Source: Legionella spiritensis (GTDB lineage Bacteria > Pseudomonadota > Gammaproteobacteria > Legionellales > Legionellaceae). Taken from it: a DNA stretch of 64,000 bases. Below are positions 11,318 to 34,127 of the stretch, piece by piece (position 1 is the stretch's first letter; every line of letters begins with the position of its first letter). Under the pieces are notes generated by a model. The model was not told where the DNA came from. It worked only from the letters and a program-made list of their open reading frames with translations, and did not search any database. The translations under genes were made by a program, and so were the position numbers. The DNA lies in NCBI RefSeq assembly GCF_900186965.1, contig NZ_LT906457.1, positions 2,072,501 to 2,136,500 on the forward strand, given 5' to 3'.

Positions 11318-11481
11318 TAGGGCGTTTCCTCATTCTGTTTCACAGCTAAAACCTGTGCTAATTTGCGCAAATTGCAGTTTGAATTCGTCAAACAGGGCTG
11401 GCTATTCTCCTCATTCAATCTGCAATTTGCGCTAAATGATCCCAATTTTTAGCTCGCGAAACAGAATGAGGACACGCCCTA
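11318..11481. repeat. Long-hairpin (MITE-like) element filling the guaB-guaA spacer
   Basis: A 164-bp near-palindrome. The outer arms TAGGGCGTTTCCTCATTCTG (from 11318) and its near-exact inverse ending at 11481 pair over ~33 bp. Inside, GCGCAAATTGCAGTTTGAA and TTCAATCTGCAATTTGCGC pair with one mismatch around a ~30-base loop. The loop core GAGGAGAATAGCCAGCCCT (minus strand) recurs in the element at 33876-34040. TA borders both ends. The element contributes the TAG stop of guaB and ends at the base before the guaA ATG. No reading frame inside, so any mobility would need a transposase in trans. Confidence 0.85.
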
Positions 11482-12951
11482 GTTATCAACCTGATAATTG
11501 GGCGCCTGTTTCGTAATGTTGACATCGTGAACATGCGACTCCCGCATGCCGGCATTGGTTACCTGGACAAACTGTGCTTGTTGATGCAAGGCAGCGATAG
11601 AATTGCAGCCCGTATATCCCATGCAGGATCGTAATCCGCCCATCATCTGATGAATGATGGTTTGCACAGGTCCTTTGTAAGGAACCCGCCCTTCAATGCC
11701 TTCGGGAACCAGCTTTTCCATGCCCAGGCTACTATCCTGAAAATACCTGTCGCTCGATCCCTGAGCCTGTGACATGGCTCCCAACGATCCCATACCGCGA
11801 TAGCTTTTATAAGTGCGTCCCTGATACAACTCAATCTCACCCGGTGATTCCTCGGTGCCTGCAAACATGCTTCCCAGCATGACGGAATTCGCTCCGGCAG
11901 CCAAAGCCTTGCAAATATCGCCGGAAAACCGGATCCCGCCATCGGCGATAACCGGAACCTGTCCCCGTACCCCATCCGCCACATTGGCTATCGCGGTAAT
12001 TTGAGGCACTCCGACACCCGTCACAATACGCGTTGTGCATATGGAACCGGGACCGATACCCACTTTCACGGCGTCGACACCGGATTCAATCAGAGCTGTT
12101 GCCGCAGCAGCCGTAGCGATATTGCCCCCAATCACTTCAATATCAGGAAAATGTTTCTTCATCCACCTGACCCGATCAAGAACCCCCTGGGAATGACCAT
12201 GGGCGGTGTCAACAATAATGACATCAACACCGGCGTCAACCAGAGCCTCTACACGCTCATCCGTTCCCTCCCCGACACCGACTGCCGCGCCAACCAGCAA
12301 CTGCTCGGCGCCGTCCTTGCTGGCCAGGGGATTTTCTTTCGCTTTCTGAATGTCTTTGACCGTAATCAAACCACGCAGCTTGAACGAGTCATTGACAACA
12401 AGGAGTTTTTCCAGACGGTGCTTGTGAAGCAAGCCTTGAACCTCTTCCCTGCCGGCACCTTCCCTGACAGTGACCAAACGTTCCTTGGGAGTCATAACCG
12501 CTGAAACGGGTAACGATAAATTCGTTTCAAACCGGATATCCCGACTCGTAACAATGCCTACCAGCAAATCCTTGTCCAGAACAGGCACACCTGAAAAATT
12601 ATGTTTGGCAATCACTTCCAGCAATTCCCTTACAGTTGTATCAGGACTGACTGATACAGGATCCCTGACCATACCGCTTTCAAACTTTTTAACTTTCCGT
12701 ACTTCATCCGCCTGAGCAAGGATACTCATATTTTTATGAATGATACCAATGCCGCCCTCCTGTGCAATTGCAATGGCAAGCCTTGCTTCAGTAACCGTAT
12801 CCATAGCGGCAGATACCAGGGGAATATTTAATTCAATATTCCGCGTTAGTCTGGTTTTAAGTGAGACTTCCTTGGGAAGGACCAGCGAATGTGCAGGAAC
12901 GAGCAACACATCGTCAAAAGTTAGTGCCTGTTGCACAATGGAAAGAGACAT
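11479..12951 (-). CDS. guaB: IMP dehydrogenase
   Basis: 490 residues. It oxidises IMP to XMP, the first step to GMP. The TIM-barrel core is interrupted by a pair of CBS domains (about residues 95-205). The catalytic Cys lies in GPGSICTTR, with the mobile flap region SSDRYFQ...EGIEGRVPYKG. AGGGG precedes the ATG. It is followed by guaA and tadA on the same strand; its stop codon is donated by a repeat element. Confidence 0.97.
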   Translation of the reverse strand: MSLSIVQQALTFDDVLLVPAHSLVLPKEVSLKTRLTRNIELNIPLVSAAMDTVTEARLAIAIAQEGGIGIIHKNMSILAQADEVRKVKKFESGMVRDPVSVSPDTTVRELLEVIAKHNFSGVPVLDKDLLVGIVTSRDIRFETNLSLPVSAVMTPKERLVTVREGAGREEVQGLLHKHRLEKLLVVNDSFKLRGLITVKDIQKAKENPLASKDGAEQLLVGAAVGVGEGTDERVEALVDAGVDVIIVDTAHGHSQGVLDRVRWMKKHFPDIEVIGGNIATAAAATALIESGVDAVKVGIGPGSICTTRIVTGVGVPQITAIANVADGVRGQVPVIADGGIRFSGDICKALAAGANSVMLGSMFAGTEESPGEIELYQGRTYKSYRGMGSLGAMSQAQGSSDRYFQDSSLGMEKLVPEGIEGRVPYKGPVQTIIHQMMGGLRSCMGYTGCNSIAALHQQAQFVQVTNAGMRESHVHDVNITKQAPNYQVDN

Positions 12952-13162
12952 AAAAACCCCTGCGATTAAATTAACCGAATATTATACAACCATTACGTAG
13001 AATATTAAATATCATTAAGTTAATTTTTTGATCGCATGGTCACAAAAATCAATCAGGGTACGCCAAAGTACGTATTACTATTATATACCCTCAAAAAATA
13101 CAATTTGTATTATTAAAAATCAGGTCATATACTTACAATACAGTATCGACAAGGAAGCCCCC

Positions 13163-13306
13163 ATGAAAAAGATGCTAATGATAACGTTTGTTATATTTGC
13201 AACAACAAGTCTTTCAGGCTGTGGATTTAATAGTTGTTGCAACAGCTATGACTACACGAACACCTACATGTCCACTACGGGATGCTGCGGATCAAGCAGT
13301 TGGTAA
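13163..13306 (+). CDS. Very small Cys-rich lipoprotein
   Basis: A 47-residue product starting at the ATG after AAGGAAG (the longer in-frame extension has no ribosome site). A lipoprotein signal (MKKMLMITFVIFATTSLSGC) places the lipidated Cys at residue 20. The mature peptide is about 28 residues and rich in Cys, Ser, Tyr and Thr (NSCCNSYDYTN, TGCCGSSSW). Followed by a strong hairpin. It resembles entericidin-like mini-lipoproteins only in size; no function can be assigned. Confidence 0.6.
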   Translation: MKKMLMITFVIFATTSLSGCGFNSCCNSYDYTNTYMSTTGCCGSSSW

Positions 13307-13317
13307 CAAGAAATATT

Positions 13318-13352
13318 ACCCGCATTCTCCCTCGGGGAGCGAGAATACGGGT
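13318..13352. terminator. Bidirectional terminator between the mini-lipoprotein gene and panD
   Basis: Stem ACCCGCATTCTC / GAGAATACGGGT (12 bp, one G-U pair) with an 11-base loop. It lies after the stop of the lipoprotein gene and just past the stop of convergent panD. Weak T-rich stretches lie on both sides. Confidence 0.6.
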
Positions 13353-13359
13353 ATATGTA

Positions 13360-32982: not shown

Positions 32983-33009
32983 TAAAGATTTTGCAAAAGG
33001 AGCCGATAA
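32983..33009 (+). promoter_or_regulatory. Sigma-28 (FliA) promoter overlapping the flgM ribosome-binding site
   Basis: TAAAGATT (32983-32990), exactly 11 bases, then GCCGATAA (33002-33009): a near-perfect match to the FliA consensus TAAAGTTT-N11-GCCGATAA. The -10 box ends two bases before the flgM ATG at 33012, and the spacer includes the AAAGGAG ribosome site. A transcript from here would start near 33016, inside flgM. Confidence 0.8.
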
Positions 33010-33011
33010 CT

Positions 33012-33326
33012 ATGGAGAGTGTACTTGAGAGAAAAGTTATGGTTAATTCTGTTAATGACTCCGGTAATTTCAAATTCATAGATCCTGACACCAAATTACC
33101 GCGCGCCGATACCCGGGCCAAAGAGTCCGTGACAACAGAAGCCAGCACCGTTAGCCTGAGCGATGTGTCGCAACAGATTTCGGCCCTGAAAGAGATGGTT
33201 TTAAACAGTTCCGAGATTAATTACGATCGTGTTCAAATGCTCAAGGAGCAATTGGACGCAGGACGCTACCAGATTCTAAGCAGTCGTATTGCCGAACGCA
33301 TGTATAGCGACTTTCAACTGGCCTAA
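33012..33326 (+). CDS. flgM: Anti-sigma-28 factor FlgM
   Basis: 104 residues from the ATG after AAAGGAG. The disordered N-terminal half and helical C-terminus (YDRVQMLKEQLDAGRYQILSS, then RIAERMYSDF) are typical of FlgM, which holds FliA inactive until the hook is finished and FlgM is exported. On mRNAs from the overlapping FliA promoter the first usable start would be Met10 (33039), still leaving a 95-residue FlgM of normal length. Confidence 0.9.
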   Translation: MESVLERKVMVNSVNDSGNFKFIDPDTKLPRADTRAKESVTTEASTVSLSDVSQQISALKEMVLNSSEINYDRVQMLKEQLDAGRYQILSSRIAERMYSDFQLA

Positions 33327-33338
33327 ACAGGAATTTAC

Positions 33339-33827
33339 ATGACCGACGTACAAAAGGATTTCATCAGTTTACTGGAGCATGAAATTGCGCTTGCCGACTC
33401 CTTGATCAAGGTGCTGGAAGAAGAAAAAATCGCCCTGACGGAAAGGCAATTTGAACAACTCGAAAACCTGTCAGAAACAAAGCAGTCGCTTGCCGGTCAA
33501 CTGGAAGACGCGCAAAAGCGGTTAATGCAACTGGTAGGTCAGACGGACATAACACGATATAAACAATCGCTGCATGATTTTCTAATAACCTGCTCTCAGG
33601 AATGCGCCGATAAAATCAATGTGCTAAATAACGAATTTGCTGAAAAACTCAATCTGTGCCGGGAAATTAACCTCGTTAACGGCCAGGTGATCACATCCAA
33701 TCTCGTAACCCGCAGAGAGATTGTCAGCGCCTTGACCGGCCAGGAAAACGCAGGGAAACCAGATACGTATACCGCCTCAGGCAATGTGAAGCCAACAGCC
33801 GGTTCCATCCGCCATCAAAAAGCGTAA
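33339..33827 (+). CDS. flgN: Flagellar chaperone FlgN
   Basis: 162 residues, all-helical. The N-terminal hairpin ISLLEHEIALADSLIKVLEE and LTERQFEQLENLSETKQSLAGQL are FlgN features. Chaperone for hook-associated proteins FlgK and FlgL. Lies 12 bp after flgM, so is probably co-transcribed with it. Confidence 0.88.
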   Translation: MTDVQKDFISLLEHEIALADSLIKVLEEEKIALTERQFEQLENLSETKQSLAGQLEDAQKRLMQLVGQTDITRYKQSLHDFLITCSQECADKINVLNNEFAEKLNLCREINLVNGQVITSNLVTRREIVSALTGQENAGKPDTYTASGNVKPTAGSIRHQKA

Positions 33828-33850
33828 ACAGAACAAAAATAACATTCCAC

Positions 33851-34127
33851 GTAGCCCGTCATGAAGGCAAGGCCGTAGGTTCTGTGCACTTATCTTTTGT
33901 CGAAGCGAAAATTGAGATAATTTAGCTCAAAATTTCGCTTGAATGAGGAGAATAGCCAGCCCTATTTGACGAATTCAAGCGAAATTTTGAGCAAATTAAT
34001 CGCAATTTGCAGCCGATAAAAGATAAGTGCACAGAGCCTAATGCGGGGTGATATACATTTGTATACATCCGAGCAGGATATTTGGCATGAAACCCGCAAT
34101 ACGGCTTACGGCCTCCTTGCGGGCTAC
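33851..34127. repeat. REP/BIME-like element 5, split by a long-hairpin insertion
   Basis: REP-B starts GTAGCCCGTCATGAAGGCAA, is cut after GGCCG at 33875, and resumes at 34041 with ATGCGGGG; REP-A (AACCCGCAATACGGCTTACG to GGGCTAC) ends at 34127. Joining the flanks across one TA restores a normal REP-B sequence. The 310-bp gap between flgN and the Cys-rich gene is almost wholly made of these repeats. Confidence 0.8.
33876..34040. repeat. Long-hairpin (MITE-like) element, second copy
   Basis: 165 bp bounded by TA. Outer arms TAGGTTCTGTGCACTTATCT and its inverse (AGATAAGTGCACAGAGCCTA) pair; inner arms GCTCAAAATTTCGCTTGAA and TTCAAGCGAAATTTTGAGC form a perfect 19-bp stem. Loop core TGAGGAGAATAGCCAGCCCT is shared with 11318-11481, but the arms differ. 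No reading frame inside. Confidence 0.85.

What the first reader, a model, noticed from the sequence alone, without database searches (positions are those of the whole stretch)
11318..34040. A family of ~165-bp hairpins with a fixed loop and changing, still-pairing stems
Two copies (11318-11481, read on minus; 33876-34040, read on plus) are 164 and 165 bp. They share the loop TGAGGAGAATAGCCAGCCCT plus TTTGACGAATTC and an internal AAAATTG.GAT.ATTTAGC block, but the inner stem arms differ (GCAGATTGAA versus TCGCTTGAA) and each still pairs with its own partner (18/19 and 19/19). The outer arms also differ and still pair. Ordinary MITEs keep their terminal repeats and lose the middle; here the loop is kept and the arms co-vary. 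That pattern argues for selection on folded RNA or single-stranded DNA.
Basis: seen in the sequence. Interest (0 to 1): 0.78.

Follow-up and report, generated by a model that had tools for sequence, protein, structure and literature searches.

The report
Mobile hairpins with a fixed cap
The two hairpins belong to a large family of tiny mobile DNA elements, for which we found no earlier description, that keep the same tip sequence and the same fold on one strand while most of their other letters change.

Summary
Both hairpins lie where stated, between TA dinucleotides, and belong to a family of 160-163-bp elements. A covariance model from Legionellaceae copies finds relatives in 38 of 143 genomes of the family and 64 of 369 Gammaproteobacteria genomes; a second model hits 50 of 398 Pseudomonadota genomes. 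Between Legionellaceae and the rest the arms are 40-45% identical and the cap 80%. Yet 93% of pair cells are standard, and 24 of 62 pairs covary beyond a tree-based null, against 2 of about 12,500 other column pairs.

One strand is folded: G-U outnumbers A-C 126:34, against 111:98 in unpaired columns. Signs that selection acts on spreading lineages rather than resident copies are suggestive only. The elements are MITE-like; in Legionellaceae several end types match IS5-type insertion sequences, though no partner was found for the two window copies. RNA or single-stranded DNA, and what reads the cap, stay open. Arm correction probably contributes. No Rfam family or paper matched.

The parts
11318..11481 (-). 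Element copy 1 (subfamily A), from TA to TA; 162 bp AGG..CCT plus the outer T and A
   Evidence: (152.3 bits)
11381..11416 (-). Cap region of copy 1 (conserved apical loop and short apical stem)
   Evidence: (genome 2083881-2083916), A1 columns 65-100
11417..11431 (-). Left inner-stem arm of copy 1 (A1 columns 50-64)
11366..11380 (-). Right inner-stem arm of copy 1 (A1 columns 101-115)
11462..11480 (-). Left terminal inverted repeat of copy 1, AGGGCGTGTCCTCATTCTG
11319..11337 (-). Right terminal inverted repeat of copy 1 (one base off)
33876..34040 (+). Element copy 2 (subfamily B), from TA to TA; inserted in a GTAG-tagged palindromic repeat
   Evidence: (161.2 bits)
33941..33976 (+). Cap region of copy 2
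   Evidence: genome 2106441-2106476
33926..33940 (+). Left inner-stem arm of copy 2
33977..33991 (+). Right inner-stem arm of copy 2
33877..33895 (+). Left terminal inverted repeat of copy 2, AGGTTCTGTGCACTTATCT
34021..34039 (+). Right terminal inverted repeat of copy 2

Best explanation
These are non-autonomous, MITE-like mobile elements. (1) Shown: about 162 bp, no long ORF, TA at both ends, terminal inverted repeats, dispersed copies between genes; copy 2 inserted at a TA. (2) Shown by sequence for several end types, mobility inferred: in Legionellaceae the outer bases match the ends of IS5-type insertion sequences, so DDE transposases of that kind most likely move them in trans, and subfamilies have adapted to different ends. 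(3) Shown statistically: the elements are held to fold, on one strand, into a hairpin of about 62-64 pairs with a fixed cap (GAGGMG - short stem - RACGA). Suggestive, not settled: this selection acts on copies that go on to spread, while resident copies decay with little regard to pairing. (4) Inferred: the folded strand, more likely as RNA from read-through transcription than as single-stranded DNA, is read through the cap by a host or transposase-linked factor, and this raises the chance that a copy multiplies. (5) Inferred: arm letters can change because hairpin-templated correction often copies one arm's mutation to the other and selection keeps pairs that still form on the functional strand.
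For: Reach. Of 40 class-level hits fetched, 38 match a strict cap pattern and 2 a looser one, with other arms and ends. Divergence: arms 0.40-0.45, cap 0.80. Pairing: 93.3% of cells against 67.4% shuffled and at most 50.6% slid; 24 of 62 pairs covary at E<=0.05, 2 outside. Strand: plus strand folds better in 81 of 82; GU:AC events in stems 126:34, unpaired columns 111:98, p 3.8e-7. Level of selection (Legionellaceae): stem GU:AC 35:8 on internal branches, 48:44 on tips; kept versus broken 35:24 against 48:111, p 1.4e-4; cap changes 55 internal/131 tip against stem 290/424, p 0.007. Ends and ISs. TA target. Intergenic 61 of 61.
Against: In Legionellaceae the unpaired columns show the same kind of shift (36:19 internal, 48:46 tips), and 35:8 against 36:19 gives only p 0.11, so the 'spreading lineages' step is weak. 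No promoter signal above shuffles in 19 representatives and no significant orientation bias (left gene co-oriented 37 of 61), so an own transcript is not supported. Loop-less derivatives of about 77-100 bp with both ends occur at several sites with the same or similar junctions, and 6 of 11 full-length G497 copies fetched share a shortened apical stem, so the cap is not strictly needed everywhere. One of 25 outer hits (L378) lacks the cap motif. No IS was found with the ends of the two window copies (among 7 PF13340 matches in the genome) or with GGAGCCTGTC-type ends.
Confidence: 0.5

Rival explanations
1. Arm homogenisation alone: the palindrome folds during replication or repair, one arm templates correction of the other, and covariation follows without selection on any fold.
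For: On branches shorter than 0.03 both partners changed in 16 cases, 15 still paired, against 0-4 for slid partners; transversion-type double changes outnumber transition-type 44:32 in the inner stem; the G497 short copies L379 and L380 each carry the same end change on both sides.
Against: It predicts no strand preference, but GU:AC at pairs is 126:34 against 111:98 in unpaired columns. It would erase standing mismatches, yet the cap and the G-U at A1 columns 74:91 (32 of 35) persist. It does not explain 0.80 cap identity beside 0.40 stem identity.
Confidence: 0.17
2. The folded strand acts as single-stranded DNA, a strand-specific substrate for a recombinase or transposase, as with REPINs or integron attC sites, rather than as RNA.
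For: One-strand fold, no promoter signal, no orientation bias.
Against: Ends, TA flanks and matching DDE-type ISs fit double-strand transposition; G-T is a weaker pair in DNA than G-U in RNA (established knowledge). No HUH or tyrosine enzyme was sought.
Confidence: 0.18
3. Host-level regulatory hairpin at individual loci (mRNA processing, attenuation or translation), as proposed for Correia/NEMIS elements.
For: 61 of 61 intergenic by a crude ORF caller; copy 1 sits exactly between guaB and guaA and supplies the guaB stop and an SD-like GAGGA before guaA.
Against: Terminal-branch changes break pairs freely (111 broken to 48 kept); no significant orientation bias; IHF consensus in 0 of 35 and 0 of 57.
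Confidence: 0.09
4. Ordinary MITE: only the ends matter, the interior is neutral, and the loop is alike through recent shared descent.
For: TA flanks, IS-like ends, many copies; loop-less short forms.
Against: The cap is far better kept than the arms across genera and classes, also in 22 copies found by the whole-element model (cap 0.84, stem 0.71); 21 stem pairs covary.
Confidence: 0.06

Closest known systems
Correia elements / NEMIS of Neisseria (passages of PMC2229807; search listing of PMC2649163)
   Same: About 100-155 bp, TIRs, TA at termini, long stem-loop transcripts, non-autonomous
   Different: Described from Neisseria; the 155-bp form carries an IHF site. Here no IHF consensus, arms change across a phylum while the cap stays, and ends differ between subfamilies
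REPINs with RAYT transposases (passages of PMC3116915)
   Same: Miniature mobile hairpins of fixed length; compensatory changes reported in the variable part
   Different: REPINs keep the two REP ends and vary the middle; here the apex is kept and the ends vary. RAYTs were not sought
Coxiella QMITE1/QMITE2 (passages, abstract among them, and section 6 of PMC5896051)
   Same: Dispersed long hairpins with TIRs, some transcribed
   Different: QMITE1 about 400 bp with an IHF site; QMITE2 contains a GTAG REP and has 7-11-nt direct repeats; in the parts seen, no fixed cap with changing arms
IS5-family MITEs (recalled kind)
   Same: Ends matching IS5-type IS ends over up to 18-22 bp
   Different: No match to the four ISs compared lies wholly inside the elements, so they are not simple internal deletions of these ISs
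Integron attC sites (recalled)
   Same: Pairing kept while sequence drifts; one strand folded
   Different: attC keeps its outer core sites; here the apex is kept

Membership tests
MITE (non-autonomous DDE-transposon derivative) | Short, no transposase gene | tested here: met
   160-163 bp for 98 of 99; longest ORF 48 aa in the 35 and 57 representatives
MITE (non-autonomous DDE-transposon derivative) | Terminal inverted repeats | tested here: met
   99 of 108 reach the end-score threshold
MITE (non-autonomous DDE-transposon derivative) | Target-site duplication | tested here: met
   One clear case: copy 2, with one TA in the joined flanks and in 7 of 8 uninterrupted repeats, two in the filled site. 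CTA/TAG flanks are common elsewhere
MITE (non-autonomous DDE-transposon derivative) | Ends match an autonomous IS | tested here: inconclusive
   Met for several end types in Legionellaceae; no partner found for subfamilies A and B of the window or for GGAGCCTGTC-type ends (with a capped list, 105)
MITE (non-autonomous DDE-transposon derivative) | Derived from an IS by internal deletion | tested here: not met
   Against four ISs, none of 211 short matches lies wholly within element positions 31-131; other parents not tested
Correia/NEMIS | IHF binding site in the long form | tested here: not met
   Consensus WATCAANNNNTTR in 0 of 35 and 0 of 57
REPIN | Inverted REPs with a conserved tag at the ends | tested here: not met
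   Ends vary between subfamilies
REPIN | Cognate RAYT gene | not tested
   No RAYT search was made
Known Rfam RNA family | Match above gathering score | tested here: not met
   Window: only t44 and tRNA; 12 loci at E<=1: 11 matches, all microRNA hairpin models below their cut-offs

The most novel reading that the evidence does not exclude
A mobile, strand-specific structured nucleic acid: a lineage of hairpins across Pseudomonadota whose conserved identity is a folded cap, read by an unknown dedicated factor, and which changes its ends to ride on different IS5-type transposases. The conserved unit would be the fold, not the transposon.
Probability: 0.35. Interest if true: 0.88.

Novelty: new variant of a known kind. 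Interest (0 to 1): 0.77.

Why it matters
MITEs are usually seen as passive ends around dispensable DNA. Here a tiny element has kept one folded cap across many families of Pseudomonadota while its arms and its ends were replaced. If the fold is needed for spread, a non-coding structure helps a parasite element multiply, and one element line can switch between transposases. It also gives an Rfam-ready family for annotating many unexplained intergenic hairpins.

Tried and rejected
Rfam: nothing above cut-off. Own promoter: scores no better than the best shuffles in 19 representatives. Orientation bias: none significant. Plasmids: no match for window copy 2; L321 and L307 each match one place, the same, in one Pseudomonas plasmid. 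Phages: none for copy 2 and L317. IMG/VR: 2 contigs with an exact cap pattern. Literature searches gave no description in their listings (open-licence PMC papers only). In one search, 19 papers hold one of the typed strings and 15 were listed; I opened one, where the string lies in a PCR primer. The order search again gave 143 genomes. The covariation test is my own R-scape-like script, not R-scape.

Ascertainment: the first copies were found by the loop, which inflates loop conservation. The whole-element model also contains the loop, so the 0.84 is only partly free of it. Rows left out: 9 of 108 with unresolved ends; one copy with a lost arm and 6 CM-found copies with large indels; 17 of 35 Legionellaceae representatives and 1 of 40 class-level copies when A2 was made. 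The 40 class-level and 25 outer copies were picked by me among the listed best hits, not at random.
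Full report
What is there. Copy 1 is window 11318-11481 (minus) and copy 2 is 33876-34040 (plus), each bounded by TA. RNA folds of one 150-nt piece of each reach z -8.5 and -12.3 with 0 of 200 shuffles as good. A model built from 35 relatives matches both over all 162 positions.

A family, not two repeats. The genome holds 17 copies with the 16-base loop core at no more than one mismatch and 35 with a looser loop. They fall into subfamilies with different ends and different inner arms, nearly all about 162 bp. 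Of 108 unique copies collected from all genomes, 99 had resolvable ends; 98 of these were 160-163 bp and 72 exactly 162. By the loop pattern, 17 of 143 family genomes and 9 of 33 genera have it. By the covariance model R1, 38 of 143 and 11 of 33. Named carriers are Fluoribacter gormanii, Legionella massiliensis, L. quinlivanii, Legionella sp. W10-070 and several MAGs.

Far beyond Legionellaceae. R1 has matches in 64 of 369 evenly drawn Gammaproteobacteria genomes, 54 of 272 genera; outside the own genome E goes down to 4.6e-29, and the listed places are almost all full length (E-values are rough by the tool's own note). I fetched 40 of the best, one per genome: 38 match a strict cap pattern (GAGG, two bases, NATA..TAT, RACGA) and 2 a looser one, inside arms and ends of other sequence, mostly GGAGCCTGTCGGACTTAGG and variants. 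R2, built from 57 sequences, has matches in 50 of 398 Pseudomonadota genomes, 43 of them outside the class and 41 of those in one family. Of 25 copies from that search, 12 match the strict and 20 the strict or looser pattern; four more are near variants by eye, and L378 lacks the motif. In some the short apical stem itself changes in a paired way, for example CATAG/CTATG. One named outside carrier is a plasmid of Pseudomonas sp. MPC6.

Fold against sequence. Between 18 Legionellaceae and 64 other elements mean identity is 0.45 in the ends, 0.40 in the stems and 0.80 in the cap. On A2, 93.3% of pair cells are standard pairs, against 67.4% when partners are dealt anew and at most 50.6% when slid; the covariation score is 0.684 against 0.203 (0 of 500 shuffles). 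With a tree-based null (60 simulations, 82 sequences) 24 of 62 structure pairs covary at E<=0.05, 21 of them in the stems and 3 in the ends; 2 of the other 12,499 column pairs pass, both in the end helix region. In Legionellaceae alone 9 of 64 pairs pass and none outside.

One strand. RNAalifold gives -84.1 kcal/mol for the plus strand and -46.8 for the minus; the plus strand folds better in 33 of 35 and 81 of 82. The structure was derived from the plus strand, which favours it. As parsimony events starting from Watson-Crick pairs in the stems, G-U arises 126 times and A-C 34 times; the same directions in unpaired columns give 111 and 98 (Fisher p 3.8e-7; internal branches 36:9 against 35:26, p 0.02). 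So the preference belongs to the pairs, not to mutation bias.

At which level? In the denser Legionellaceae set GU:AC is 35:8 on branches leading to several copies and 48:44 on terminal branches (Fisher p 0.0012). Pair-keeping against pair-breaking single changes are 35:24 and 48:111 (p 1.4e-4). The cap has 55 internal to 131 terminal changes and the stems 290 to 424 (p 0.007). That would mean that pairing and cap matter for lineages that multiply and hardly for a copy once it sits in place. Against it, unpaired columns of the same set shift the same way, 36:19 internal and 48:46 terminal, and 35:8 against 36:19 is only p 0.11. I treat this step as suggestive.

Mobility. The elements lie between genes in 61 of 61 cases scored with a crude ORF caller. 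Copy 2 interrupts a GTAG-tagged palindrome: joined flanks with one TA give the sequence seen in uninterrupted repeats elsewhere in the genome (TA at that place in 7 of 8). In Legionellaceae several ends match those of IS5-type ISs found by PF13340: six 866-bp copies in G000, 1301 bp in G068, 870 bp in G113, 940 bp in G112. Short matches between elements and these four ISs are at most 18-22 bp among the top ones, and none of 211 lies wholly within element positions 31-131, so the elements are not internal deletions of these ISs. The 7 PF13340 matches in the window's genome do not include an IS with the ends of subfamilies A or B. For GGAGCCTGTC-type ends I found no partner either: 9 of 12 genomes gave no PF13586 hit, the resolved 824-bp ISs of G417 and the IS5 of the Pseudomonas plasmid have other ends, and the list of ends was capped.

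Against the reading. Loop-less derivatives of about 77-100 bp with both ends occur at several sites; they may be recurrent deletions at short direct repeats or may have moved. Six of the 11 full-length copies fetched from G497 for this (6 of 12 with L321) share a shortened apical stem, so some spread happened without an intact cap. Neither a promoter nor an orientation bias speaks for an own transcript. Compensated double changes occur even on the shortest branches (16, of which 15 pair, against 0-4 for slid partners) and include many transversions (44 to 32). That points to hairpin-templated copying between arms as a source of the changes. It does not explain the strand preference, the standing G-U and mismatched positions, or the cap.

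What it works like, and what it is. It works like a MITE and meets most MITE criteria, but against the ISs tested it is not an internal deletion, and the transposase is open for the window copies and for the wider family. It resembles REPINs in having compensatory changes and a fixed length (passages of PMC3116915) but keeps the apex rather than the ends. It lacks the IHF consensus of long Correia elements (0 of 35 and 0 of 57; passages of PMC2229807). No Rfam family matches, and eight literature searches listed no description.

Scores. The role of the cap is inferred. I rate interest 0.77 and call it a new variant of a known kind, with a 0.35 chance that the fold itself is a distinct, cap-read mobile entity.

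Noticed in passing
window 11314-11482: Copy 1 fits exactly between guaB and guaA: the guaB stop TAG is formed by the TA plus the element's adjoining G, and the other end puts an SD-like GAGGA and CCCTA directly before the guaA ATG.
   Followed up: partly
window 33851-34128: A GTAG-tagged palindromic repeat (GTAGCCCGTCATGAAGGC...GCGGGCTAC), interrupted by copy 2.
   Followed up: partly
L210, L276, L280, L281 (G000): Another MITE-like element of about 215 bp with AGGYTCTGTGAACCAATTTT-type ends and a GTAG-type palindrome inside; it shares its ends with subfamily D.
   Followed up: no
L194, L273; L204, L283; L211, L212 (G000); L379-L381 (G497): Loop-less short derivatives with both ends; deletions lie at short direct repeats and recur at several sites.
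   Followed up: partly
L383, L384, L385, L390, L392, L393 (G497): A sublineage with the same bases of the apical stem missing, present at six of the fetched sites.
   Followed up: partly
window 5148-5258: t44 RNA (RF00127) at 69.1 bits on the minus strand.
   Followed up: no
L328 9524-9685 and L329 1-102: The element also occurs in two IMG/VR contigs.
   Followed up: no
L268 (G111), L251 (G113): Copies with extra DNA inside the apical region.
   Followed up: no
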